A DNA stretch of 64,000 nucleotides from a virus, in IMG/VR virus record IMGVR_UViG_3300022188_000006, positions 92,276 to 156,275 of that record. One strand, 5' to 3'. Positions 1 through 63,743 of this stretch are shown piece by piece; the stretch's first letter is position 1; every line of letters starts with the position of its first letter. Under the pieces are notes generated by a model. The model did no database searches and had not been told where the DNA came from. It worked only from the letters and a program-made list of their open reading frames with translations. Both the position numbers and the translations under genes were made by a program.

Positions 1-2191
1 TCACGGAATAGCCTGTCGCCGATTTCTGCGTCTGATTAGTCAGAGATAGGGTCGCACCGCTGACCAACGTGCCATTCCGATGAACTTCGGCAACCCAGCT
101 CGCAATGTTGCGCGCACTCGCCGACATGGCAACCAGCTTGCAATTGTAAGGGATTACGAACCCATTCGAGCCGGTCGAAACACCATCAGCATAAAGGTAT
201 ATGTTCGAACTGTAATTTCTCCGGGCGGCCGTCAAACAGAACAAGCCACCCGCCGACTGCGGTCCCTGGTAACCCTGGCTGCCCTGAAATCCATTGGCAC
301 CTGTCTCGCCCTGAGGACCCTGACTGCCTTGCGGCCCCGGATTCGTACCCTGTGGTCCCTGAACACCCTGAGGACCGTAATCACCAGATATTCCCTGCCA
401 GCCCTGAGGCCCCTGGAACCCTGTCGGCCCCTGCACACCTTGACTGCCAGCAGCACCCTGTGCACCTTGTGGACCAGCGGCACCGGGGGGTCCAGCAACT
501 CCTTGCGGTCCAGCGGAGCCAACAGGCCCTTGAAAGCCGGTATCGCCCTGAACCCCTTGTGGTCCCTGTGGACCCTGCGGGCCGGGATTGGTGCCCTGCG
601 GGCCTTGTACGCCCTCGCCCTGCGGCCCCTGCACACCCTGCGCACCTTGCGAACCGAGATCGCCTTGATTACCCTGTTCGCCCTGCGGCCCCAAACCACC
701 TTGTGGACCCTGAACGCCTTGCGGCCCCGAATCCCCTTGAGGCCCTTGAACACCGCTTCCCTGCCAACCCTGCGGCCCTTGGTTTCCTTGTGAACCGGAA
801 ACACCTTGACTACCCTGAACACCGGCATCACCCTTCACCCCTTGCGGACCCTGCGCGCCGTCAGCACCAACATCGCCTTGTGGGCCAATAGACCCTTGGA
901 CGCCTTGAGCCCCTTGCACCCCTTGAACACCCTGTGGACCCTGGACTCCTTGTGTGCCAATTCCTTCGGCACCCTGCACGCCCTGAAATCCCTGTGCGCC
1001 TTGGTAACCAATAGCTCCCTGGTAGCCCTGCGGACCTCCAACGCCCTGTGGACCTTCCTGACCCTGGTACCCGATTGGACCCTGGTTGCCGTCTATGCCC
1101 TGCGGACCTTGATCACCTTGAAACCCGGTTGGACCTCTTATGCCTTGGGGTCCCTGACGACCTTGGTAACCTTGCGGGCCTTGAACACCCTGAGGGCCGG
1201 TATCTCCGGTTTGCCCCAGACCCTGCGGACCTTGCACGCCTTGGGAACCGGTTGGTCCAGCATCTCCTTGTGCACCCTTTTGCCCAATTGGCCCCTGTAC
1301 GCCTTGAGGACCTTGGTTTCCCTGAATCCCCGGTGTTCCTGGATCTCCTTTGAAACCTTGCGGGCCTTGCGGCCCAATCTGCCCGTCAAGTCCTTGTGGC
1401 CCTTGCATACCCTGCGGGCCTAGACCTTGAGGCCCCTGGGAGCCTGTTTCGCCGATATCGCCTTGCGGCCCAAGAGCGCCTTGCGGTCCTTGTGCCCCCT
1501 GCGCACCAGAAACACCCTGTGAGCCTTCCTCGCCCTGAGGTCCAGTCGCCCCTTGCGCACCTTGGTACCCGTAACCTTGTGGCCCCTGGGCACCTTGTGG
1601 CCCGAAGTCTCCCTGCGCTCCCGTATCTCCCACAGATCCCTGAGGACCAATCGAGCCGGTATTTCCCTGGGGACCTGCAGTGCCCTGCGGGCCTTGTGGA
1701 CCGGCTTCTCCTTGGTAACCCTGCGGGCCACGAAGACCAAGTGGCCCCTGCGCGCCAGTGTCCCCCTGGGCACCCTTGCTACCTTGGACACCCTGGTTTC
1801 CTATCGGCCCCTGATTCCCCGCAACACCTTGCCAGCCGCGAACTCCCTGTGGCCCCTGAACACCCTGGACACCTTGCGGTCCCTGAATACCCTGAGCACC
1901 ATCAAGGCCATCAACACCGTCAGCTCCGGAAGGCCCTTGGACACCCTGCGGACCGGAAATCCCTTGAGGTCCTTGCGCGCCTTTCAAACCTTCAAAACCC
2001 TGTGGACCTTGAACACCCTGCGGGCCTATTTGCCCCGTATCACCTTGCGGCCCCTGAGCACCTTGAAATCCATACCCCTGCGGACCCTGTGGACCTGGGT
2101 TGGTGCCTTGAGGCCCTTGAGGTCCGAGCCCCGTGACCTTCCTCCTAACACCGAATCCGCGTTCTCCGCGGGGAACATGCGAGACCGGCAT
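1..2191 (-). CDS. Collagen-like tail fibre protein (C-terminus beyond window)
   Basis: The minus-strand frame starting at the ATG at 2189-2191 stays open to the window edge (at least 730 codons). After about 20 residues it becomes a long run of Gly-X-Y triplets, mostly Gly-Pro-Gln, down to about position 250 (roughly 210 triplets). A non-collagenous C-terminal domain follows, rich in Asn, Ser and Val and probably a beta sandwich, and it runs off the window. In phages such proteins are trimeric fibres whose C-terminal knob does folding or receptor binding; that role here is inferred. A GAGG ribosome-binding site lies 9 nt before the ATG, and the previous gene ends 7 nt upstream. It is the last gene seen of the late operon and follows a beta-propeller protein, which fits a tail or baseplate-decoration module. 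The longer ORFs in other frames are artefacts of the repeats. Confidence 0.9.
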
Positions 2192-3793: not shown

Positions 3794-4116
3794 CCGACCA
3801 CCCCCTCAAAAATGGCAGCGTAAGCGGCATCCTCTGCGTCCAGCTTCGTCCGCAACCGATCACGCGGAGAGAAAAGGAACTGCTGCCCCCGGGCCACCTC
3901 TGCAAATAGGTATGTGTTATTTACGGACCTGTGCACCTTTTCCAGCACTTCTCCCGCTGGCGCCTTCAGGTCGATTCCATCCATCCAATCCTCGTCAGCG
4001 CGTCCTCGCAGCAATACCGCCTTTCCGTCCTTGACAGCCCATTCCTGGACGATCACACAATCCCGTGTGCGCGGGTTTTGCTCGTAGACGGTCATGACAA
4101 CATTACCAGCGGCCAC
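3790..4116 (-). CDS. Small protein paired with kinase-like gene
   Basis: 108 residues, starting with GTG 7 nt after a perfect GGAGG that lies inside the end of the upstream kinase-like gene (overlap 14 nt). The stretch around residues 20-75 (…VKDGKAVLLRG…, then a Glu/Val-rich helix-like part) resembles by eye the C-terminal 80 residues of the larger kinase-like protein at 15547-17430 (…LKGDKVVVLSGE…). If that is real, the same accessory domain is a separate polypeptide here and fused there. Function unknown; the translational coupling suggests it acts with the kinase-like protein. Confidence 0.7.
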   Translation of the reverse strand: MAAGNVVMTVYEQNPRTRDCVIVQEWAVKDGKAVLLRGRADEDWMDGIDLKAPAGEVLEKVHRSVNNTYLFAEVARGQQFLFSPRDRLRTKLDAEDAAYAAIFEGVVG

Positions 4117-4933
4117 CTAGTTTCCTCCATGTCCGCATTTTCTTGAGTTCCGAGTGACGCTTGAGAACCCCGTCTAGCTCACGGTCGCCCATTCGTGCCT
4201 CAGTCATTGCTTCCGCAACAGCCTCTAAGTCGGCCTTCTCCAGTATCTGCCGGACATCCTCGGTTATTTCTTTGCCGACGAGTCTCCGCCCAATCACAGA
4301 AAGCATATGCGTCCTGTCATCGCCGGAGGTAAAGGCGTAACCGTTGTCTATAGCGTAAATCCGCTTCTGCGGATCCACGAGCAGATTGCTTGCATGTCGG
4401 TCAATCTGTCCGCAGATAAAGTCGAATGCAGCACAACGATGAAACCAGGGATTTTCTGGATGCTGCCGATAATCGTATCGCCCCGACCGGCGTAACTCAC
4501 TCAACAATGGCAACCTGACCCACGCCATCATAGAACCGGAACCTTCATTGTCTAGCGTTCTGCCGACAACAGGGGGGACCAGGTCGAACCCATATATCCG
4601 GTCCAGCTTATACACCAGAAGCTCTCGCTCCGAAGGGCTCACCTTCGGATCCATTGCCGACAAGTACCGCCCGGTCTCATATCTAAACTCGTGCTTCTTA
4701 AATACAGCCTGTGTACAGTCGATAAAACCCTTGCGGAACGAAGTTTTCAATCTAACTCTCAAGGGACGATGGATCCCCTTGCCGATGGGCTCAGAGTACA
4801 GCTCTTCCGCCTGGGTTAGCACCAGACAACATTTGGCGTGGTCCAGATCGTCCAGACCCTTATCAAGATCAGCCGGCGCGAAGCCGGCCGACCTCCGCAT
4901 ACCGGAGAGTAGCCCACCAGTCAGCGCGTTCAT
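4103..4933 (-). CDS. FAM20/PI-kinase-like protein (atypical kinase fold)
   Basis: 276 residues. Motifs of the HipA/FAM20/PI4-kinase group are visible: RELLVYKLDRI near residue 103 (candidate ion-pair Glu), VPPVV at 119-123, the catalytic-loop-like motif DRHASN at 178-183, and the metal-binding-like IDNG at 195-198. These families phosphorylate proteins or lipids; the substrate here is unknown. Order and spacing match the larger paralog at 15547-17430. A kinase carried in the late region could be packaged and injected to modify host proteins, but that is inference. No strong ribosome-binding site is visible (GGAA 5 nt from the ATG); an in-frame TGA upstream limits alternatives. Confidence 0.75.
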   Translation of the reverse strand: MNALTGGLLSGMRRSAGFAPADLDKGLDDLDHAKCCLVLTQAEELYSEPIGKGIHRPLRVRLKTSFRKGFIDCTQAVFKKHEFRYETGRYLSAMDPKVSPSERELLVYKLDRIYGFDLVPPVVGRTLDNEGSGSMMAWVRLPLLSELRRSGRYDYRQHPENPWFHRCAAFDFICGQIDRHASNLLVDPQKRIYAIDNGYAFTSGDDRTHMLSVIGRRLVGKEITEDVRQILEKADLEAVAEAMTEARMGDRELDGVLKRHSELKKMRTWRKLGGRW

Positions 4934-48996: not shown

Positions 48997-50003
48997 CACA
49001 GCCCCCTTATGCAGGAAATCACGAGGTCGAAGAACTCCGGGTCCTGCGAAGCAAACTCCTGCGGGTCATACATGAGTCGTTCCATGCCGCAGGAGAGCAC
49101 TTCCATGCCAGCTCCTTCTTCTGTGTCTCCTTCCGACTTGCCATACAATCTGCCTGTGTACTCGCGTCCGCCCTTTTCTACCCATTTGTCCGGTTTGTAT
49201 CTGTATTTTCCAATTAGCGGTGATGTTTCCTCTATGACCTCGTCGTCTTTGGTCCTTTCATGGAAGAAGCGCTCAACAGCGTCTCTGATAGCTTTGTTCT
49301 GATGCCATAAGTGGTGCATGTACTCGTGATAAAGGTCATCTTCGGTTTTGTCTATGGTGGCCTCCTTGGCGTAGGCTAGCAATATGACCGGTCCCTCGTA
49401 ATCCACTGGATCATTGCGTGTCCCTCGTTTTCCCCGAGCGTCGTACAGGCTGAACCTGTCTACGTCAATACTGACCGGTTTTGTCTCCAACTGGGAGAAA
49501 ACATCTGCGGAGATCATCCTGGAAAGCGTTTCCATAGCAGGCGCAATTTTTGCCATCCTAGCTTTCGCCAATTCAGGATTGGGCAACCACTCGTGCCGCA
49601 ACTTGATGGCATCGCTGAGTGGTTTTCGCTCCAATTTGGCCGGGTCCCTCACGGAAAGGCTGGCTACTAGGCGCCTTCTTCTCAAAGCGTCTGCTGCTTG
49701 GAACTCTGCAGCGGCTTGAAGGGCAGTCACACTGTCAACCTTTCCTGCGGCTTGTCCCTCAGAAGCACGTTCGTAGTTTTCCTTTGCCTGGCGGTACTCG
49801 GCAACTTCCTCTGGTGTCATATAATTCGCGAGGTCAGAAGCGAAATCCAGGAAATGCTCCCGGACCTGGGAAGGAGATTGTATCTTCTTGGCAGTTGCTT
49901 CGGAAACGCGCGTCCAGCCGGTATCGGTGCGGACCCATGGCTCGGGTTTCCCGCCGGGGCCAGTCTTCCAGTTTCTGATTTCGCCTACACGAGCCGGTTT
50001 CAC
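48996..50003 (-). CDS. Zinc metallopeptidase-like late-type protein
   Basis: 335 residues. YHEYMHHLWH (about residue 224) is an HExxH zinc motif, followed by a GAGMEVLSCGMERLMYDP segment with a candidate third-ligand Glu. The N-terminus (VGEIRNWKTGPGGKPEPWVR, then TDTGWTRV) has the aromatic/basic motif seen in other virion-like proteins here. It may cleave a virion or host protein. GTG start overlapping the metK stop (GTGA). Confidence 0.72.
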   Translation of the reverse strand: MKPARVGEIRNWKTGPGGKPEPWVRTDTGWTRVSEATAKKIQSPSQVREHFLDFASDLANYMTPEEVAEYRQAKENYERASEGQAAGKVDSVTALQAAAEFQAADALRRRRLVASLSVRDPAKLERKPLSDAIKLRHEWLPNPELAKARMAKIAPAMETLSRMISADVFSQLETKPVSIDVDRFSLYDARGKRGTRNDPVDYEGPVILLAYAKEATIDKTEDDLYHEYMHHLWHQNKAIRDAVERFFHERTKDDEVIEETSPLIGKYRYKPDKWVEKGGREYTGRLYGKSEGDTEEGAGMEVLSCGMERLMYDPQEFASQDPEFFDLVISCIRGL

Positions 50004-51124
50004 GCGGCACTCGCCTCCGCAAGAAGAGCTTCGGCCAGGGTCGGCCGTTCCCAGGAATAGAACCCGGGATGACCGAAGTGCCCATAGACCGAGGTATCAT
50101 AGTAGATGGGCTTGCGCAAATCAAGACACTTGATAATCCCGGTAGGGCTGAGGTCAACCATCTCCGGAAGAACGCGGGAAAGTATGGAATCCATCTCGCG
50201 TCCGGCGTCGGTCTTCACAAAAACGGACAGGGGCCGCTCGACGCCAATCGCATAGGAAAGTTGAACTTCGCACTCCCCTGCGAGTCCTGCAGCGACAACA
50301 TTGAGGGCCAGCCAGCGGGCCATGTAGGCGGCGGACCTGTCGACCTTTGTGGGGTCCTTGCCGGAAAATGCGCCACCACCATGGCGCGCCCAGCCACCAT
50401 AGGTGTCGACGATGATCTTCCGACCTGTCAGCCCGCAGTCACCAGCAGGCCCACCAATAACGAACTTGCCGGTTGGATTGATGAGAACCCTCTTCGGCTG
50501 GAAGTAATCCTGGAAGACCTGGTCTATGACGGGCTGCAGCAGGTCGGGAACGTGCTTGGTAAGATCGGGATGATGTTGGACGCTGACGAGCAAACTCTCC
50601 ACCGAGACGGGGTGATTATCATCGTCGTAGGCAACGATAATCTGGACCTTGCCATCGGGCCAGATGCCATGAATGTCCGCTTGGTCAATGGCCCGACAAA
50701 GACGCTGGCAGAGGTAAATGGGCAGCGGCATGTAAGCGGTCGTCTGGTTGGTCGCGTAACCGAACATGAGGCCCTGATCGCCAGCTCCACCGGCATCAAC
50801 CCCCTGAGCAATGTCTCTGGACTGGGCGACCAACTTCGACGCTACGGGAAGCGTCTCCGGGTCCATTCCATAGCTTGCTTCGGTATACCCGGCGTCGGAA
50901 AGAACGGAATGAACAACGACGGCGGGGTCGACTTTTCCTGCGGAAGTGACTTCTCCGGCGACAACGGCCAGATGGCCGGTGATCATGGTTTCGCAGGCTA
51001 CTCTGGACAGCGGATCCTGCTCAAGGAGAGCATCCAGGACACCATCGGAAATGGAATCGGCCAGCTTGTCCGGATGACCGCGACGCACACACTCTGAAGC
51101 AAACAGAAAGCCATTGTTATTCAT
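50000..51124 (-). CDS. metK: S-adenosylmethionine synthetase
   Basis: 374 residues from the ATG at 51124 (AAGGAG 7 nt upstream), matching the family's usual length. GHPDKLADSISDGVLDALL at the N-terminus, GAGDQGLMFGYA and GGGAFSGKDPTKVDRSAAY are the ATP/Met-site and phosphate-binding motifs, all intact. It makes SAM from methionine and ATP. In this phage SAM could feed the DNA methyltransferase (63 kb) and the radical SAM enzyme (59 kb), or overcome a host SAM shortage. An SAM-producing gene is rare in phages; SAM-degrading enzymes are the more familiar strategy. Confidence 0.96.
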   Translation of the reverse strand: MNNNGFLFASECVRRGHPDKLADSISDGVLDALLEQDPLSRVACETMITGHLAVVAGEVTSAGKVDPAVVVHSVLSDAGYTEASYGMDPETLPVASKLVAQSRDIAQGVDAGGAGDQGLMFGYATNQTTAYMPLPIYLCQRLCRAIDQADIHGIWPDGKVQIIVAYDDDNHPVSVESLLVSVQHHPDLTKHVPDLLQPVIDQVFQDYFQPKRVLINPTGKFVIGGPAGDCGLTGRKIIVDTYGGWARHGGGAFSGKDPTKVDRSAAYMARWLALNVVAAGLAGECEVQLSYAIGVERPLSVFVKTDAGREMDSILSRVLPEMVDLSPTGIIKCLDLRKPIYYDTSVYGHFGHPGFYSWERPTLAEALLAEASAA

Positions 51125-51392
51125 TGCCTTGCTCCTTGTTTTTGTGCTCAACACCGTCCGGGCCAACGATGTCGAACATCTTCTGCTCGTCGTAATCAGG
51201 TTTGCGTTTCTTGAACTCCTCGTAGGCCCACTGGACGAAGCGGTAGAGCACTCGCGGGCGACTGGTGCCCAGGAAACGGGCGACAGCAGAAATAATGACG
51301 TAAGTTTCTGCATCGACGTTGAGGGTGCGATTCCGATATCGCTTCGGAGCGCGCAATAACTCGTCGAGGTGATCCGTGTGTTGTTCGGTCAT
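51117..51392 (-). CDS. Hypothetical protein upstream of metK
   Basis: 91 residues from the ATG at 51392 (AAGGA 9 nt upstream). RYRNRTLNVDAETYVIISAV, then ARFLGTSRPRVLYRFVQW (about 17-56) looks like a ribbon-helix-helix or HTH DNA-binding region; the rest is charged. Overlaps the metK start by a few bases, so it may regulate metK (inference). Confidence 0.6.
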   Translation of the reverse strand: MTEQHTDHLDELLRAPKRYRNRTLNVDAETYVIISAVARFLGTSRPRVLYRFVQWAYEEFKKRKPDYDEQKMFDIVGPDGVEHKNKEQGNE

Positions 51393-52755: not shown

Positions 52756-55608
52756 TCAACCTGATTGCTTGAGAAGCCATTCCTGTTGGGGAGATTCGGC
52801 ATCACCGTAAATCACGGTTGGGAGCTTCGTAAAGGCCACCTCGCCAGGCCAACGGCTGCAGAATTCCCAGTCGTGGGCGTAACCAACTTCTTCCCGAGAC
52901 TTCCACCAGCCAGACGTAAGCACGATGTGTTTCCTGTGTAGCATACAGCTCGTATCGACCTGGCCACGCTCTTTCCTTTTGAATATCAGCGGAACGGAGT
53001 TTGACTCTAATTCCATGGAAGAAATGACGCCGGAGGTTGCTGGGGAGAGAAGGGAAACCAGCGAAGACAGATGGTTAGGCTTCCAGCGGTTGTCATCATC
53101 GAGGTAAGCGATCAGTGGAAATCTGGAGGCAGCAATGCCGACGTTCCGCGGGTAAGCACCACCAGCACCATGATTGGTGTCAAGAGAAATAACCCACAGC
53201 AGTAAGCGGAGAGAATCGGGAATCTGAATAAGCGTCTCCGGAACCGGCCCTCCGTCATTGACAACAAGAACTTCGAAGGGGAAATAGTCCTGAGCCAAAG
53301 CCGACTCAAGAGCCTTTAGAAGCTTCTGTGGTCTGTTGTGGGTAGGAATGACCACAGAAACTCCGGGGCCAAAATGAACCTGCGGTATAAGGTGGTTGCG
53401 CGGATGCCGGTAGGTAAAAACAGGGAAACCATCAAGGAGCAAATCCGAGTGATCACAGCCAAGTTCATTGTACCAGATTGCGTTTCGGTCGCGCCGGGCC
53501 TGATCGTGAGCCGAAAGATCGTGGAGGATGAAAATGTCGTCCTTGATGAGAATCTGTCTTTCGCCTCCTATCAGTTTTTCGTGGACCGGAAGCTTCCAGC
53601 GGAGCGCGTTTGTCATGCGGAAAAGATAAGGTTTTGGCACCCACTCCTTGTCATCGCTGTCCTTGAGGCGGAGGTGCAGAACGTCATATGGAAAGCAGTC
53701 GCTGATCTCTACCAGTCTGGAAAGAATCTCTTGCGGAGGAATCTCGTCTGGATCCTGCATGACCACCATATCACCTGGCTTAGCGAAGACAGAAAGGGCA
53801 GCGTTGCGCTGTTCTGCGAAGTTAGTGAACTTTCGCTCGGAATAATAAACGCCGTTGGCAGAAGCCCACTCCTTGGTTCCATCCGTAGAACCGGAATCAA
53901 GGATACAAATAGAATCGACCCCGGCTTCCCTGTACATGGGAACAATCCGTTCCAGCTGTGGCCGTTCATTCAAGGTGATCATGATGAGACTTAGCCGGTG
54001 TCTGAGTGCAGGAACGGCAGGAACAGAGGCTTTCTTGTTGTCTGATATGCAAGGAACAAAGCTCTCCATCACAACCTCTGTCTGCGGCTGAATCTTCTTG
54101 AGGTAAGCTGCCAAGGAACACAGCGGATCATGAAACCAACAGGGCAGATAGTCGATAGACGCATCCGGCGGGAGATAAACAAGCGACGGATTGTCAGCAG
54201 CCGATGCCTGAAAAACGATGGGCTTGTCGGAGCAGCGCGCAAAAATGTCCTGGAAGGAATTACCAGAGATAGGAATTTTGAGAGAGGGGTGCACGATCAG
54301 AGTGGCCTCGGTGGTTCCAGCAAGCAGGAGGCGTAGAAGGTCAGCCATCGAAGGTTGGTCCGACTTGTCGAACTCTGGACAAGAAACACCGGCCGCTACC
54401 CTGCCGGTCCAAGATGAAATATACCCCAAAACAAGCGAACCTTCGGGGACTGGACAGCAGACGCGAATGTCTCGGTCAGTGCTGACCGAAACGACCGGCC
54501 GGTTGTTGGAACCAGAAAGGCGCTCAGAGTTTACACGCTCAAACTCGGTGCGATAGTGTTGGCGACCAAGAGCCAGATGGTCCTGGATTGCCTTGTTGCG
54601 GAGGAAGGTGGTATTTTTCCAGGAGTCATGGTAGCGATAGAGGTAGAGCATCTTGTCGAGGTGCAGACACTTCGAATACAGGAAGAACCGTGCAAAGAGA
54701 TCCCAGTCATCTGCCACAGGTAGATTCGGGTTGTAGCCGCCAAGTTCGCGGAAGATACTCGCGCGAAAAGCGCGGACATGGTTAGGCCCAACTGTAAGGA
54801 ACCAAGCGAACTGCTGATCAAAGCCATCCCCGAAGCGGTCATAAATGTTCGGATTCACAGCTTCTTTGTAGACCTTACCACGGTACTCGGTGTCGCGGTA
54901 CCGCTGGCGCCAGAAGTCGTCAGTGAACTGCTGCGGGCTGCCATCCGGAAAAAACGAGGCGCAGTTGCTGTAGACCATGCCAACGTCCGGGTTAGCCTGA
55001 AAGGCAGAGACAACCTCTTGCAGAGCATCGTCGGCGAGCATGTCATCGTGGTCCAGCTCAACAAGAAACTCACCGCGGGCCAGCCGGGTGGCCACGTCCT
55101 TGCTGTATCCAATCTTTCCCTGATGCGGCATGAGGAATGGCCGAACCCGAAAGTCTTCCTGGGCCAGACTCATGATACGCTCCGCGGTTCCATCTGTGCT
55201 TCCATCATCGACCACGCACCACTCCCAGTTCGAGTAGGTTTGCTCTCTGAGTGACTGGTAGGTGTCGCGGAGCAGGTCTCCAGTGTTGTAGGTACAGGTA
55301 TACACAGAAACGAGTGGGAAGTCAGCGTCGTGAGGATGAGGGGACCAGATGTTGAATGAGTAGCACTGCTCAACAGCTCGACAGACATCTTCCGAAGGGC
55401 TGTTCGGGGGAACGTCGATCCAGCGTTTCCTGAGGGCGAACGGTGCTCTGGAGAGAACAGAAGGCAAATTGCCGGAAGTAACAACGACATCCGGCCGAAA
55501 CCCGGCAACGTCAAGGAATATCCGGCGCGGGTCCTCGTTGACCATGGTGTCGTAGGGAAGATGAAAATCGCAGCCAACCAAAAGCACCTTGATACCGGAT
55601 ACAGACAT
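52756..55608 (-). CDS. Triple glycosyltransferase fusion (three GT-A domains)
   Basis: 950 residues. GT-A domain 1 (about 98-330): VSVYTCTYNTGDLLRDTYQS, VVDDGSTDGT, ELDHDDML. Domain 2 (about 545-740): LSLIMITLNERPQLERIV, LDSGSTDGT, MQDPDEIP. Domain 3 (about 770-945): VSVVIPTHNRPQKLLKALES, VVNDGG, AYLDDDNRW. Each has a DxD-like metal site. About 200 residues between domains 1 and 2 resemble no family I recognise. GT2-type enzymes transfer sugars from nucleotide donors; with the collagen-like fibre in the same phage, virion glycosylation is plausible. AAGGG before the ATG. Confidence 0.92.
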   Translation of the reverse strand: MSVSGIKVLLVGCDFHLPYDTMVNEDPRRIFLDVAGFRPDVVVTSGNLPSVLSRAPFALRKRWIDVPPNSPSEDVCRAVEQCYSFNIWSPHPHDADFPLVSVYTCTYNTGDLLRDTYQSLREQTYSNWEWCVVDDGSTDGTAERIMSLAQEDFRVRPFLMPHQGKIGYSKDVATRLARGEFLVELDHDDMLADDALQEVVSAFQANPDVGMVYSNCASFFPDGSPQQFTDDFWRQRYRDTEYRGKVYKEAVNPNIYDRFGDGFDQQFAWFLTVGPNHVRAFRASIFRELGGYNPNLPVADDWDLFARFFLYSKCLHLDKMLYLYRYHDSWKNTTFLRNKAIQDHLALGRQHYRTEFERVNSERLSGSNNRPVVSVSTDRDIRVCCPVPEGSLVLGYISSWTGRVAAGVSCPEFDKSDQPSMADLLRLLLAGTTEATLIVHPSLKIPISGNSFQDIFARCSDKPIVFQASAADNPSLVYLPPDASIDYLPCWFHDPLCSLAAYLKKIQPQTEVVMESFVPCISDNKKASVPAVPALRHRLSLIMITLNERPQLERIVPMYREAGVDSICILDSGSTDGTKEWASANGVYYSERKFTNFAEQRNAALSVFAKPGDMVVMQDPDEIPPQEILSRLVEISDCFPYDVLHLRLKDSDDKEWVPKPYLFRMTNALRWKLPVHEKLIGGERQILIKDDIFILHDLSAHDQARRDRNAIWYNELGCDHSDLLLDGFPVFTYRHPRNHLIPQVHFGPGVSVVIPTHNRPQKLLKALESALAQDYFPFEVLVVNDGGPVPETLIQIPDSLRLLLWVISLDTNHGAGGAYPRNVGIAASRFPLIAYLDDDNRWKPNHLSSLVSLLSPATSGVISSMELESNSVPLIFKRKERGQVDTSCMLHRKHIVLTSGWWKSREEVGYAHDWEFCSRWPGEVAFTKLPTVIYGDAESPQQEWLLKQSG
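54472..54489. repeat. Dispersed palindrome copy 5 (in glycosyltransferase gene)
   Basis: TCGGTCAGTGCTGACCGA, the complete 18-bp form in the opposite orientation (TG centre) to copies 1-4. Minus-strand codons read Val-Ser-Thr-Asp-Arg. Confidence 0.8.
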
Positions 55609-58183: not shown

Positions 58184-58735
58184 TCACGGCACCCGCGGCA
58201 GTCCGAAGTCGCGCTTCTTAATCTTCCCTTTTCTTCCATCTGGATGCCAGAACACGATTCCTTCTATGTCCATGTCGGCCAGCCATTCCCTAAGCTCGTC
58301 GAATGTACGCGGGCAATCGGCAAGAATATCCCGACCGTGAGGGACAAGCACGTGTTCATCGAATCCCTCTGGATTGCCTTGTACTTTTGGGCCACACAGC
58401 TCATAGGTACCATCGGGAGGCGTTCCGATCCTGTCAAGAGCCTCGAAGTAGTATCGGTCGTTGGGATCGCCCATGCGAACAGGAACCCAACCGATTCTTT
58501 TGCCGGTTTCTCGATCAACCTGGACCTCGATGAAGTCAGCGGGCGCCTTCTTCCCGGGGCGAACCTCTCGCCGCTTGAAGCACTGTCCATCCTGTATAAG
58601 CACACATGTGCCGTCGTACTTCCTTGTCGGAAGTCCTTCGCCGCGGAAAACCCAGTCGCAGTCAGGGTGCGGATTCCTTGTGATGCGGGACTTGTTGTCT
58701 AGGTCACGAAGGAAAATAGTGGGAATCTTGCGCAT
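58184..58735 (-). CDS. RNA-ligase-like nucleotidyltransferase (DUF5565-like)
   Basis: 183 residues. LPTRKYDGTCVLI contains the ligase motif I K-x-D-G (K39), DGTYELCGPKVQ the motif III region, DIEGIVFW motif IV (about 157) and GKIKKRDF motif V. This order is that of nucleic-acid ligases and capping enzymes; the small size fits the DUF5565/Rnl-type group. It may seal RNA nicks, countering host tRNA cleavage. GGAG before the ATG, TAATG overlap with the radical SAM gene. Confidence 0.83.
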   Translation of the reverse strand: MRKIPTIFLRDLDNKSRITRNPHPDCDWVFRGEGLPTRKYDGTCVLIQDGQCFKRREVRPGKKAPADFIEVQVDRETGKRIGWVPVRMGDPNDRYYFEALDRIGTPPDGTYELCGPKVQGNPEGFDEHVLVPHGRDILADCPRTFDELREWLADMDIEGIVFWHPDGRKGKIKKRDFGLPRVP

Positions 58736-59757
58736 TACTTCTCCGGCAGAGGAACCAGTGGAGCATCCACAGTCTTTGGCTGTCGACCGCTGAGAACGGC
58801 GTTTCCACAGGTAATCATACCTTCGTCCTCATCCATCGAGGGAACAAATACCAGCACGTCGAAGCCATTGGCTTTGAGATCTTCTTCGCACTGCTGATAG
58901 GGTACGTATGAGTGATAACCTTCGGCAGTAGTAACACCAAACTTTGTCGAGGTCGTCGTAACGTGAATTGGGGTGATCTTGCAGATGAAGCGGGCTGGGT
59001 CGAAAAGACGGGCCATTTCTTTGCCATCAACTTCAGTTCCGTCAGCCAGAGCAATGTTCACAGTATATTTGCGACCGACGGGATCAGGCAGCTTACCGGC
59101 AATTTCGGAAATTTCTGCGAGAGACAGAGAACAGCCGTCGAACATATCCTGTCTCTGCTGCTCGTTGGTGGTGTTGATGGACAGTTGCAGGCCGGCGTTT
59201 CCGCCAAAAACTTCGTTTTTGATCTCGCACCACTCCAGCAGGTAATCCAGCAGAGATGTATGCGCCTTGGGCATCATGGTAGAGAGTACGGGATGGACAA
59301 GGCTATTGCGGACGACATCATGCTGCGGAGAACGGATAAGATTCCGCGCATGTTCCAGAACCGCCGGGTTGAACGTGGGCTCTCCCATCCTGGCATAGTG
59401 GATGTTGAGCCTGGCTGTCTTGGTAATATCTGGGAACATCGACAAGGCGCTGGCTACTTGGAGATCCATGTCCGTAACGCTGGCGTTGATACCAGGCCCA
59501 ACCAGGGGCACGTCGCAGAACTTGCACCGCATGGAGCAGCCGTACTGACTAGAAATCGTGACGACCCACTTCTTCGTCAGCGGCATTACCTGCTTGGCTG
59601 TGACACCGTTGATGGGATCCGGCAAGCCAAGGAAATCCGCCTTGATGTTGTGCTCTTTGCCGTAGTCCCCGATGGAAAGGCATTCGAGCTTGCCCTTCTG
59701 ACCTTCAACTATGAGGATATATCCGGTAGGCACACGGATGACTTCCTTGATAGCCAT
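58735..59757 (-). CDS. RlmN/Cfr-like radical SAM enzyme
   Basis: 340 residues. TISSQYGCSMRCKFCDV (about 65-80) has the Cx3Cx2C iron-sulfur triad in the RlmN context, ARMGEPTFN is the RlmN GEP motif, and ITCGNAVL near the end gives the C-terminal catalytic Cys (RlmN C355 position). The upstream catalytic Cys of RlmN (C118, seven residues before the triad) is Thr here, so the reaction may differ from C2-adenosine methylation of rRNA/tRNA. AGGAG before the ATG. SAM may come from the phage MetK. Confidence 0.85.
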   Translation of the reverse strand: MAIKEVIRVPTGYILIVEGQKGKLECLSIGDYGKEHNIKADFLGLPDPINGVTAKQVMPLTKKWVVTISSQYGCSMRCKFCDVPLVGPGINASVTDMDLQVASALSMFPDITKTARLNIHYARMGEPTFNPAVLEHARNLIRSPQHDVVRNSLVHPVLSTMMPKAHTSLLDYLLEWCEIKNEVFGGNAGLQLSINTTNEQQRQDMFDGCSLSLAEISEIAGKLPDPVGRKYTVNIALADGTEVDGKEMARLFDPARFICKITPIHVTTTSTKFGVTTAEGYHSYVPYQQCEEDLKANGFDVLVFVPSMDEDEGMITCGNAVLSGRQPKTVDAPLVPLPEK

Positions 59758-59783: not shown

Positions 59784-60020
59784 CTAGTCGTCCCTAACTC
59801 CAAGGTGATCAAGTACCTGCCGAGCCATCGCGGGGTTGTATCTGAGGATCATCTTAACGAGTGTGGTAAGGTCGTCAGCATCCAGGATGACATCTCCGAG
59901 GCTCCTGAATTCGACTTCACCGGTGCTGGCATCGAAGAAAACAACGAGATCCGGCTCGCCCTCCTTACCACTGGTGAAAGTGATAGAACTAATCACGGGT
60001 TTCTCCTTTTCCATGCCCAT
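59784..60020 (-). CDS. Small hypothetical protein
   Basis: 78 residues from the ATG at 60020, just inside the end of the upstream gene; the longer ORF reads through that gene. ISSITFTSGKEGEPDLVVFF and VILDADDLTTLVKMILRYNP suggest a strand-helix fold. Weak GGA site. Unrecognised. Confidence 0.55.
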   Translation of the reverse strand: MGMEKEKPVISSITFTSGKEGEPDLVVFFDASTGEVEFRSLGDVILDADDLTTLVKMILRYNPAMARQVLDHLGVRDD

Positions 60021-60856
60021 ATTCCGGGCGGATCCTTGCTTTCTTCTATGGTGCCGTCGGGCCTGAGCCGGTACCAGTACCCGCTCTTGGCTTCTTTTCC
60101 GACATGTAGCGCCTTGCATATCATTCGTTTAGTGTGCCCGTTCCAGGTGGCTAGCAAAATACAGCCCTCTTGCCCGGCCGAAGCCCAACCTCCATGAACA
60201 GCAACGGCTACGCCGTAGTGACCTGGAGCGGCGGCGCATCCGTCATCAGCGAGCGCACAAGCGTGGCCCGCTGTGCCCTCAGCCAGCGCACAGCTGGACG
60301 ATCCAGCAACAACCGCGTGACTTTGGTAGCCGGTAGCTCTGGCTCCGCTCTCATCACCGCTTGCCAGGGCGTGTGCGCGCCAGCCCTTGGCCAAAGCCTT
60401 GGACTCATCTTGCTTGACATGGGCGTGCTCGTAATCCCCGGAAGTGCGGGAACGACCCCTGTAGGCATTCTCCCCGTAACCGACAATACAAGCCGGATCC
60501 GGGGCGTAACGAGCAAGGAAAGCCGTCGCACTGCGCCGAGTACCGATGTGGACAATGCGGCAGCGTTTACACTTGGCGCCTATCTCCATGTCGACCAATG
60601 GCTTGTGCACTGCCAACACCAGCCAAACGCTCCCACGACGCCAGTTCAGGAGGCTGTAACTCCCTTTGCCCCATGGCAGGTAGTAGAGGCCGTCCCAGTA
60701 CTTATTTGTCGCCGTCCACTTTTCGGCGTGTACCCAGGCACCAACCTTTAGGGGCCATATCATACCTTCGGGGCCGATGCCTTCGGAACTTACGCTTTTT
60801 AACCCGAGCAGTGCATCGCCTGGGAGACGGTTCCAGCTTTTTCCCCGAGGTTTCAT
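59993..60856 (-). CDS. Repeat protein with Ala/Gly-rich beta-helix-like units (DUF7666-like)
   Basis: 287 residues. Residues 140-235 hold about ten 8-to-9-residue units of the type SxAxAxGxxSxA (ALASGDESGARATGYQSHAV), as in left-handed beta-helix or YadA-head repeats. The N-terminal 100 residues are Trp-rich with a C-x-x-C; the C-terminus (YWYRLRPDGTIEES) is beta-rich. GGAGG 6 nt before the ATG. Function unknown; a sugar- or surface-binding role is possible. Confidence 0.65.
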   Translation of the reverse strand: MKPRGKSWNRLPGDALLGLKSVSSEGIGPEGMIWPLKVGAWVHAEKWTATNKYWDGLYYLPWGKGSYSLLNWRRGSVWLVLAVHKPLVDMEIGAKCKRCRIVHIGTRRSATAFLARYAPDPACIVGYGENAYRGRSRTSGDYEHAHVKQDESKALAKGWRAHALASGDESGARATGYQSHAVVAGSSSCALAEGTAGHACALADDGCAAAPGHYGVAVAVHGGWASAGQEGCILLATWNGHTKRMICKALHVGKEAKSGYWYRLRPDGTIEESKDPPGIWAWKRRNP

Positions 60857-62581: not shown

Positions 62582-62851
62582 CTATTCCTCTGCAACTGCA
62601 ACGAGATCTGATAAGAACTCCTTTGCGTCCTTTAGCTCGTCAAAGTACACGGCCAGAGGTGTTTCGGCAGACACCATGAGAATGTTCGAGCCGGACACAA
62701 GAAGGAAACTGCCGGAGACAAGCGAGACGCGGTTGCCCTGCTCGTCAAACAAGAACAGGTCCTGAACGAGACGATACTGCTTTGTGCCGGTTGGCTTACG
62801 AACTGTAGTACCAAGTGGAATCATGTGCGCTGGAAGGATGATCTTAATCAT
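62582..62851 (-). CDS. Small hypothetical protein, intact paralog
   Basis: 90 residues from the ATG at 62851 (GGAG 6 nt upstream, overlapping the methyltransferase stop). IILPAHMIPLGTTVRKPTGT, then LFLFDEQGNRVSLVSGSFLL: beta-rich, perhaps a small barrel, with a helical end (ELKDAKEFLSDLVAV). A shortened relative lies at 61923-62117. Unknown. Confidence 0.65.
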   Translation of the reverse strand: MIKIILPAHMIPLGTTVRKPTGTKQYRLVQDLFLFDEQGNRVSLVSGSFLLVSGSNILMVSAETPLAVYFDELKDAKEFLSDLVAVAEE

Positions 62852-63626
62852 GCTGTGCTCCAAGCCCTGGAAGACAATTCCGGCAAGCAAGCTCTTCGGC
62901 GCGGATACGGTCTCGCGCGACGCTAAAATACGCTTCGTCGATCTCTATTCCGATGAAGTCTCTGCCAAGGCGTACACAGGCAACACCGGTTGTTCCACTG
63001 CCCATAGCAAAGTCGAGAACGGTGTGGCCTGGGTTCGTATAGGTACGTACTAGGTATTCAAGCAGTTCCACGGGTTTCTGTGTAGGATGTAATTTTCCGC
63101 TGGAATTGTGAACACACTTAATACCCTGCAAGACGGTATCAGGATTTATCCAATCGTCCTGTCTGTCTAAGTAAAACTCGCGTTGACGCCCATAGACGCT
63201 CGTTTTGCTATTCCTTTTATTCCCTGACTTTCGCTCGGTGGTCCTGGGACGCTTCTGCGGATTGTAGGTACCTCCGAGTTTGTCGCAGAAGATTGAAATT
63301 ATCTCGTGCCCGGTCATGGGTTTCTTGCGCGCATTCAGATTGTCTGATTTCAGGTTTTTCACCCAGATCCAATCGTAGCGGAAATTGGAAAGGTTGCTCA
63401 TACGGAGCAAGCTGCTAAAAGGCTCACTCCCGAACAAGGCAATCACGGCATTCGGCTTTGTCACTCTCCGCAGCTGCGCCCACATTGGTTCAAGAGGAAT
63501 GACAGCATCCCATTTGCAGGCGGTTTTTCCGTATGGCGGATCCGTGATAACGGCATCAACTGACCCTGAGGGCAGAGATTCCATCTGCTCCAAGCAGTCG
63601 CCTAGTAAAAGAAGATTCTTGGACAT
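62844..63626 (-). CDS. DNA methyltransferase (amino-MTase, DPPY type)
   Basis: 260 residues from the ATG at 63626 (AGG 4 nt upstream); an upstream GTG has none. VDAVITDPPYGK (D29-Y32) is the catalytic motif IV, and TVLDFAMGSGTTGVACVRLG (about 203) the SAM-binding motif I. The order IV then I marks the beta class, methylating N6-adenine or N4-cytosine. HPTQKPVELLEYL is conserved in this class. It may protect phage DNA from restriction. No cognate restriction gene lies nearby. Confidence 0.93.
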   Translation of the reverse strand: MSKNLLLLGDCLEQMESLPSGSVDAVITDPPYGKTACKWDAVIPLEPMWAQLRRVTKPNAVIALFGSEPFSSLLRMSNLSNFRYDWIWVKNLKSDNLNARKKPMTGHEIISIFCDKLGGTYNPQKRPRTTERKSGNKRNSKTSVYGRQREFYLDRQDDWINPDTVLQGIKCVHNSSGKLHPTQKPVELLEYLVRTYTNPGHTVLDFAMGSGTTGVACVRLGRDFIGIEIDEAYFSVARDRIRAEELACRNCLPGLGAQHD

Positions 63627-63743
63627 GTTACCTGTCGACTTGTAATTCCTAGACACAGGACACTATCCTGCATGACGCGATGACTCCTTTTGTTCACAGT
63701 ACTTACCGCTTGAGCCTGGATTTTTCAACGGCACGCCGGAAAA
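63627..63743. other. 117-nt spacer before methyltransferase
   Basis: Contains AAAAGGAG followed 10 nt later by an ATG opening a 23-codon ORF that runs into the methyltransferase gene in another frame. This is too weak to call. No terminator stem seen. Confidence 0.3.

What the first reader, a model, noticed from the sequence alone, without database searches (positions are those of the whole stretch)
52756..55608. Three glycosyltransferase domains in one phage protein
Three GT-A domains, each with its own nucleotide-sugar and DxD-like motifs, are joined in a 950-residue chain. Together with the collagen-like fibre 50 kb away, this suggests stepwise assembly of a glycan on a virion protein or on hydroxymethylated DNA bases.
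Basis: partly seen in the sequence, partly recalled or inferred. Interest (0 to 1): 0.55.

Follow-up and report, generated by a model that had tools for sequence, protein, structure and literature searches.

The report
Phage multi-enzyme fibre-sugar assembly protein
A large bacterial virus carries one protein made of three sugar-attaching enzymes joined together, and its relatives in other viruses sit beside collagen-like fibre genes, which suggests that these viruses build sugar chains onto their own fibres.

Summary
Window 52756-55608 (-) is one intact 950-codon ORF with three GT2 domains (Pfam PF00535, three stretches), each with its donor and metal motifs. Eleven distinct relatives (ten IMG/VR records and a MAG contig) share the order N-D1-...-D2-D3; with the window they form one clade (100/100). 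The eight relatives scanned with Pfam have four or five GT2 stretches, and two also a methyltransferase. The window protein lacks their second GT2 domain. Collagen-like genes are present in 9 of 12 of these records; the three misses are the 9, 14 and 25 kb fragments. Generic-GT2 control records: 2 of 22. In eight relatives the collagen tract lies 1.0-6.7 kb from the gene. The nearest relative by D1 shares the window phage's head module and carries the GT gene inside it. Bacterial D1 homologues also neighbour collagen-like genes: 52 of 75 loci against 1 of 40 control GT2 loci. D2's best solved relatives are protein or peptide glycosyltransferases. Best reading: a virion-fibre glycan assembly enzyme. 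DNA glycosylation is not supported: no hydroxymethylase or C5-methyltransferase was found. Function is inferred.

The parts
52756..55608 (-). Three-domain GT2 protein, 950 aa
   Evidence: Intact ORF; PF00535 in three stretches
55324..55608 (-). N-terminal unit, residues 1-95, alternating strands and helices, conserved in all 12 members; function unknown
   Evidence: BLAST hits to all relatives, 32-51% identity; secondary structure; mean 42% identity
54514..55323 (-). GT2 domain D1, residues 96-365
   Evidence: PF00535 101-238; mean 64% identity to the 11 relatives; best solved relative chondroitin synthase K4CP, second domain
54004..54468 (-). Stretch 381-535, at the place where relatives carry a further GT2 domain; no recognisable domain here
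   Evidence: 18% identity against 42% among relatives; no trace of the relatives' domain in six frames; block pLDDT about 20-36
53374..54003 (-). GT2 domain D2, residues 536-745, of the protein/peptide-glycosyltransferase type
   Evidence: PF00535 and PF13704; profile hits GmaR 2.6e-15, 7msk 8.2e-10, SunS 1.7e-9
52759..53373 (-). GT2 domain D3, residues 746-950
   Evidence: PF00535; profile hits AvpGT 9jma 2.8e-24, chondroitin synthase 2.7e-23
2..2191 (-). Collagen-like fibre gene (760 aa in all, continues left of the window); proposed acceptor protein
   Evidence: PF01391 repeats; ORF read across the window edge: 192 G-X-Y triplets in runs of 4 or more, Y = Gln in 124

Best explanation
The protein is a soluble glycan assembly enzyme of the phage: several GT-A/GT2 transferases joined in one chain so that successive sugars can be added by one molecule. 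Its most likely acceptor is the phage's own collagen-like fibre (or a protein that goes with it). Shown here: three GT2 domains with intact donor/metal motifs; a monophyletic family of such multi-GT proteins, mostly in phages; presence of collagen-like genes in every family record of 35 kb or more, and close linkage to them in eight relatives. Inferred: D2 starts the glycan on the polypeptide, because its best solved relatives are protein or peptide glycosyltransferases; D1 and D3 extend it, because theirs are mainly polysaccharide-building enzymes; the missing second domain would leave the window phage with a shorter or different glycan than its relatives.
For: Three intact GT2 domains. One clade of 12 N-D1-...-D2-D3 proteins, 100/100. 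Collagen matches (PF01391) in 8 of 11 family records searched, plus the window record and the contig of L099; the 3 misses are the fragments of 9.1, 14.1 and 25.2 kb. Control records with weakly related GT2s: 2 of 22. Without the near copy L176 this is 9 of 9 records of 35 kb or more against 2 of 22, Fisher p 2.7e-6. Nearest collagen run 1.0-6.7 kb from the gene in 8 of 8 distinct relatives that have one in the fetched locus. L174 shares seven head-region genes with the window phage (first 175 residues of the capsid-like protein 91% identical), and there the GT gene lies between a small membrane-protein gene and the other head-region genes. Single-domain D1 homologues in genome contigs lie by collagen-like genes in 52 of 75 loci against 1 of 40 GT2 control loci; by taxon label 24 of 35 have at least one such locus. 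D2 profile best matches GmaR, 7msk and SunS (their protein or peptide acceptors are from recall). No transmembrane-like stretch (maximum 19-residue hydropathy 1.31), so a soluble cytoplasmic enzyme fits.
Against: No biochemistry. In the window phage itself the gene is 50.6 kb from the fibre, among genes typed as replication or unknown. The partner collagens are mostly Gly-X-Gln, and several bacterial ones have almost no Thr in the helix, so the known Thr-linked collagen glycosylation cannot simply be carried over. Among weak D2 relatives in viruses 13 of 47 loci also have collagen tracts, so linkage is not confined to this architecture. Most other collagen loci examined in the same genomes (33 of 40) have no D1 gene nearby. 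The terminase search did not place a terminase on L099's contig, so that member may not be viral. Loci are not independent (30 of 75 are Paenibacillus), and the control records are smaller (median 45 kb against 104 kb).
Confidence: 0.58

Rival explanations
1. The enzyme remodels the host's surface glycan (LPS, capsule or wall polymer) during infection, for example to block superinfection.
For: PHROG hits include GtrB-like O-antigen conversion families, and a phage hit is annotated as a LOS glucosyltransferase. Published accounts of phages usually propose this role (passages of PMC7029224 and PMC10202952). The gene lies in a region with replication-type genes, not by the fibre.
Against: No GtrA-type partner in the record (PF04138), no membrane segment. 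Relatives keep the gene in the fibre/structural region. D2 resembles protein glycosyltransferases.
Confidence: 0.2
2. It glycosylates another virion protein (capsid, tail tube or a minor fibre), not the collagen-like fibre.
For: In L174 the gene directly precedes homologues of window-phage head-region genes. Virion glycosylation of capsid and tail tube is reported for mycobacteriophages (read only as cited in passages of PMC12619734 and PMC11256854).
Against: Head genes differ between members: the window capsid-like protein is found in only 2 of 11 family genomes or records, one of them at E 8.7e-4, while collagen-like genes recur; D1 homologues in cellular genomes also sit by collagen genes.
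Confidence: 0.15
3. It adds sugars to hypermodified DNA bases.
For: Phage glycosyltransferases often act on DNA (recalled; also stated in passages of PMC12619734). A DNA methyltransferase gene lies at 62844-63656.
Against: No PF00303 and no PF00145 match in the record (controls rang in 9 and 10 of 14). The TET search is uninformative. Collagen linkage is unexplained by this reading.
Confidence: 0.04

Closest known systems
Chlorovirus PBCV-1 A111/114R and A064R
   Same: Virus-encoded chains with three transferase domains that build a glycan on a virion protein (abstract of PMC7826918; passages of PMC9614988)
   Different: Eukaryotic virus, N-glycan of the major capsid protein; homology to the window protein was not tested; here the linkage is to collagen-like genes, mostly in phages
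Clostridioides difficile SgtA acting on BclA3
   Same: A GT-A enzyme whose gene lies immediately upstream of a collagen-like gene and which adds GlcNAc to threonines of the collagen repeats (passages of PMC7157674)
   Different: Single GT domain with TPR repeats, no TPR match here; window collagen is Gln-rich with 13 Thr among 192 Y positions; sequence relation to D2 not tested
Mimivirus L230
   Same: Viral enzyme that glycosylates collagen-like protein (passages of PMC9614988)
   Different: Lysyl-hydroxylase fused to one GT, sugar on hydroxylysine; no such fusion here
Chondroitin synthase K4CP and heparosan synthase 2
   Same: Best fold matches; two GT2 domains in one chain
   Different: Make free polysaccharide (recalled); fold match of the whole chain is poor (TM-score 0.18-0.21 by query)
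GmaR and SunS
   Same: Among the best solved sequence relatives of D2; modify a protein or a peptide (recalled)
   Different: Single GT domain, other acceptors

Membership tests
GT2 / GT-A glycosyltransferases (PF00535) | Family profile over its cut-off | tested here: met
   Three stretches over cut-off
GT2 / GT-A glycosyltransferases (PF00535) | Donor motif, DxD and catalytic acid or HxE-type motif in each domain | tested here: met
   Acidic residues invariant across 12 members
GT2 / GT-A glycosyltransferases (PF00535) | Transferase activity with a nucleotide sugar | not testable with these tools
   Needs an enzyme assay
Virus multi-domain glycan assembly proteins (chlorovirus A064R, A111/114R as models) | Three or more transferase domains in one chain | tested here: met
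Virus multi-domain glycan assembly proteins (chlorovirus A064R, A111/114R as models) | Common descent with A111/114R or A064R | not tested
   Sequences not compared; the claim is likeness of working, not membership
Virus multi-domain glycan assembly proteins (chlorovirus A064R, A111/114R as models) | Product is a glycan on a virion protein | not testable with these tools
   Needs mass spectrometry
SgtA-type collagen O-GlcNAc transferases | GT plus TPR repeats | tested here: not met
   No TPR family in P0001
SgtA-type collagen O-GlcNAc transferases | Gene next to a collagen-like gene | tested here: inconclusive
   True in 8 relatives; 50.6 kb apart in the window
SgtA-type collagen O-GlcNAc transferases | Threonine-rich collagen acceptor | tested here: not met
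   Y position: Gln 124, Thr 13 of 192
Phage DNA base glycosylation systems | Hydroxymethylase of the thymidylate synthase family | tested here: not met
   0 matches in the record, control rang in 9 of 14; record may be incomplete
Phage DNA base glycosylation systems | C5 methyltransferase plus TET oxygenase route | tested here: inconclusive
   No PF00145; TET control rang nowhere
GtrA/GtrB serotype conversion | GtrA-type membrane partner and membrane anchor | tested here: not met
   No PF04138; no strongly hydrophobic stretch

The most novel reading that the evidence does not exclude
Phages and bacteria share a dedicated class of collagen-modifying glycosyltransferases (the D1 family), and in large phages it was extended into multi-GT assembly lines that decorate Gly-X-Gln collagen fibres. 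Since many partner collagens have little or no Thr in the helix and are filled with Gln (and in phages Asn), the sugar may be attached through an unusual side chain such as Gln or Asn, and not through Thr as in BclA-type collagens.
Probability: 0.12. Interest if true: 0.85.

Novelty: new variant of a known kind. Interest (0 to 1): 0.6.

Why it matters
Phage glycosyltransferases are usually explained as acting on DNA or host surfaces. A conserved multi-GT protein tied to collagen-like fibre genes would make virion-fibre glycosylation a recurrent strategy of large phages, parallel to chloroviruses and mimivirus, and it names the acceptor to test. The D1-collagen link in bacteria gives a handle on how bacterial collagens may be glycosylated in general.

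Tried and rejected
Single-protein search of viral contigs with the whole protein found nothing, and the searches with the D1 alignment A1 found only one full-length relative in viral contigs and one MAG contig; the others came from D3 and D2 alignment searches. A viral control set through the ribonucleotide reductase gave no locus, so weak D3 and D2 relatives served as controls: 2 of 70 and 13 of 47 loci with collagen tracts. The D2 figure speaks against a clean specificity and is reported as such.

The stretch 381-535 was first thought to be a decayed copy of the relatives' second GT2 domain; the six-frame search shows no trace, so I call it unassigned. A likeness to lysyl-hydroxylase-type GT domains that I thought I saw by eye was not tested and is dropped; the model is of low confidence there. 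DNA glycosylation and GtrA-type serotype conversion were tested by family searches and disfavoured. L099's contig could not be confirmed as viral.

Papers: seen as search listings; passages only of PMC10202952, PMC7029224, PMC7157674, PMC12619734, PMC11256854, PMC10253068, PMC8968730, PMC9614988; outline and abstract of PMC7826918. Freeman et al. 2023 was not read, only its citation. None of these ten searches listed, by title or shown abstract, a paper on multi-GT proteins beside collagen-like genes in phages; the library lacks most subscription journals.

Full report
Observation. The ORF at 52756-55608 (-) is intact, 950 aa. Pfam finds PF00535 in three stretches with E 1.8e-54 for the whole protein. 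In the 156,275-base IMG/VR record that holds the window (window = 92276-156275), PF00535 matches exactly three places, all in this frame. The motif residues of all three domains are present, and the acidic ones are invariant in the alignment of 12 members. AlphaFold2 gives a chain with mean pLDDT 68.4 and pTM 0.48: the domain cores lie mostly at 80-93 by blocks of ten, residues 367-535 are unresolved. Foldseek puts two-domain GT2 polysaccharide synthases first, E 2e-15, with low whole-chain TM-scores.

The family. A search of viral contigs with the protein alone found nothing. Alignment-based searches with D1, D3 and D2 led to 11 distinct relatives with the same order N-D1-...-D2-D3: ten IMG/VR records of 9 to 513 kb and one 121 kb contig binned as Lokiarchaeota (L099), plus L176, a near copy of L175 that I dropped from counts. 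They form one clade with the window in a D1 tree of 136 rows, support 100/100 (the tool warns of long branches elsewhere in the tree, and of long branches meeting next to this clade). Lengths run from 982 to about 1650 aa. Pfam, run on 8 of the 11, gives four or five GT2 stretches each, and two of them also a Methyltransf_24 domain. So the kind is a modular chain; the window member is the shortest, and the segment where the relatives carry their second GT2 domain has 18% identity to them against 42% among themselves, with no six-frame trace of that domain. Its D2 and D3 also diverge more (32% against 49%, and 46% against 55%), while D1 does not (64% and 64%).

Link to collagen-like fibres. PF01391 was searched in the 11 IMG/VR records of the family, the near copy included: 8 of 11 match, the misses being the records of 9,141, 14,058 and 25,195 bases. 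The window record and the L099 contig also match. Without the near copy this is 9 of 12 records, and 9 of 9 of those with 35 kb or more. In control records that carry a GT2 only weakly related to D3, 2 of 22 match (22 chosen by me from 70 such loci, mostly those on larger contigs; they are smaller than the family records, median 45 against 104 kb). Fisher p is 2.7e-6, to be read with that bias. In 8 of 8 distinct relatives with a collagen run in the fetched locus the gap to the gene is 1.0 to 6.7 kb. The window is the exception at 50.6 kb. An explanation is at hand: L174, the nearest relative by D1 (72% identity), shares seven genes of the head region with the window phage, among them a capsid-like protein whose first 175 residues are 91% identical; there the GT gene lies between the small membrane-protein gene and the next head-region gene, whereas in the window record these two are neighbours without it. 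The gene has thus probably been relocated in one of the two lines. L174's contig starts just before that membrane-protein gene, which in the window phage is close to the collagen genes.

D1 homologues in genome contigs. Of 75 loci found with the D1 alignment, 52 have a G-X-Y run of ten or more triplets within the fetched stretch. As a control I took the two highest-scoring listed PF00535 places in each of 20 of these genomes (in two genomes the second choice was replaced because it lay in the same locus as the first): 1 of 40 stretches has such a run (p 2.6e-13, not independent; a few stretches were cut at contig ends). Of the 75 D1 loci, the 20 in the same genomes have a run in 19, but I had chosen these genomes after seeing the runs. 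Thirty of the 75 loci are Paenibacillus (25 of 30 with a run); outside that genus 27 of 45. In viral contigs 26 of 80 D1 loci have runs, several from near-identical contigs; weak D3 loci 2 of 70 and weak D2 loci 13 of 47. Conversely, of 40 collagen places fetched from 20 of the 30 genomes searched, only 7 have a D1 gene nearby. So D1 predicts a collagen neighbour, but most of these collagens do without D1.

What might be modified. D2's profile finds GmaR (2.6e-15), 7msk (8.2e-10) and SunS (1.7e-9) first among solved structures; that these act on a protein or on peptides is recalled. D1 and D3 find chondroitin synthase, heparosan synthase, AvpGT and similar enzymes. This suggests, without proving, that D2 starts on the polypeptide and D1 and D3 extend. 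The window collagen has 192 triplets in runs of four or more, with Gln in 124 and Thr in 13 Y positions. D1-linked collagen loci have Gln as the commonest Y residue in 41 of 51 loci, against 12 of 32 unlinked loci (counted from its per-locus list; one of the 33 unlinked loci had no run; p 1.3e-4; 14 of the 33 unlinked loci come from two genomes). Since SgtA of C. difficile uses Thr of the repeats (passages of PMC7157674), either the acceptors are the few Thr/Ser, or the flanking domains, or another residue.

DNA and host-surface readings. No PF00303, PF00145 or PF04138 match was found in the record, with controls ringing in 9, 10 and 7 of 14 genomes; the TET search is uninformative. The record is linear and may be a fragment. 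The protein has no strongly hydrophobic stretch.

Context. Multi-domain viral glycan builders are known in chloroviruses (PMC7826918 abstract; PMC9614988 passages), collagen glycosylation in mimivirus (PMC9614988 passages) and in spore collagens (PMC7157674 passages), and virion glycosylation in mycobacteriophages (cited in PMC12619734 and PMC11256854 passages). The combination found here, multi-GT chains beside collagen-like fibre genes in large phages, did not appear in the listings of the ten library searches made. I rate it a new variant of a known kind.

Noticed in passing
window 50000-51313 (-): S-adenosylmethionine synthetase gene in a phage (Pfam domains E 3e-59 to 2e-29; PHROG 1569), two genes downstream of the GT gene.
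   Followed up: no
window 58735-59757 (-): Radical SAM protein, 57% identical over 97% to one of Bacteroides phage Versailles, otherwise rare among phage records (4 of 50,697 records match).
   Followed up: partly
L178:3275-7462 and L255:4299-9248: Two family members carry a Methyltransf_24 domain inside the multi-GT chain, like the GT plus methyltransferase chain A064R of chloroviruses.
   Followed up: no
L019:4796-6355: Between collagen genes and the multi-GT gene lie ORFs that by eye look like one more glycosyltransferase and a methyltransferase; not searched.
   Followed up: no
window 4103-4933 (-): Near the fibre genes, an ORF that by eye resembles a lipid- or protein-kinase-like fold (motifs recalled, no PHROG match).
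   Followed up: no
viral loci L258-L304: Weak D2 relatives in viruses also have collagen tracts nearby in 13 of 47 loci, more than weak D3 relatives (2 of 70).
   Followed up: no
window about 48000: GC skew changes from strongly negative to about zero near 48 kb, close to the border between replication genes and the GT region.
   Followed up: no
window 59993-60856 (-): ORF with short Ala/Gly-rich repeats that by eye recall trimeric adhesin head repeats; PHROG hits are of unknown function.
   Followed up: no
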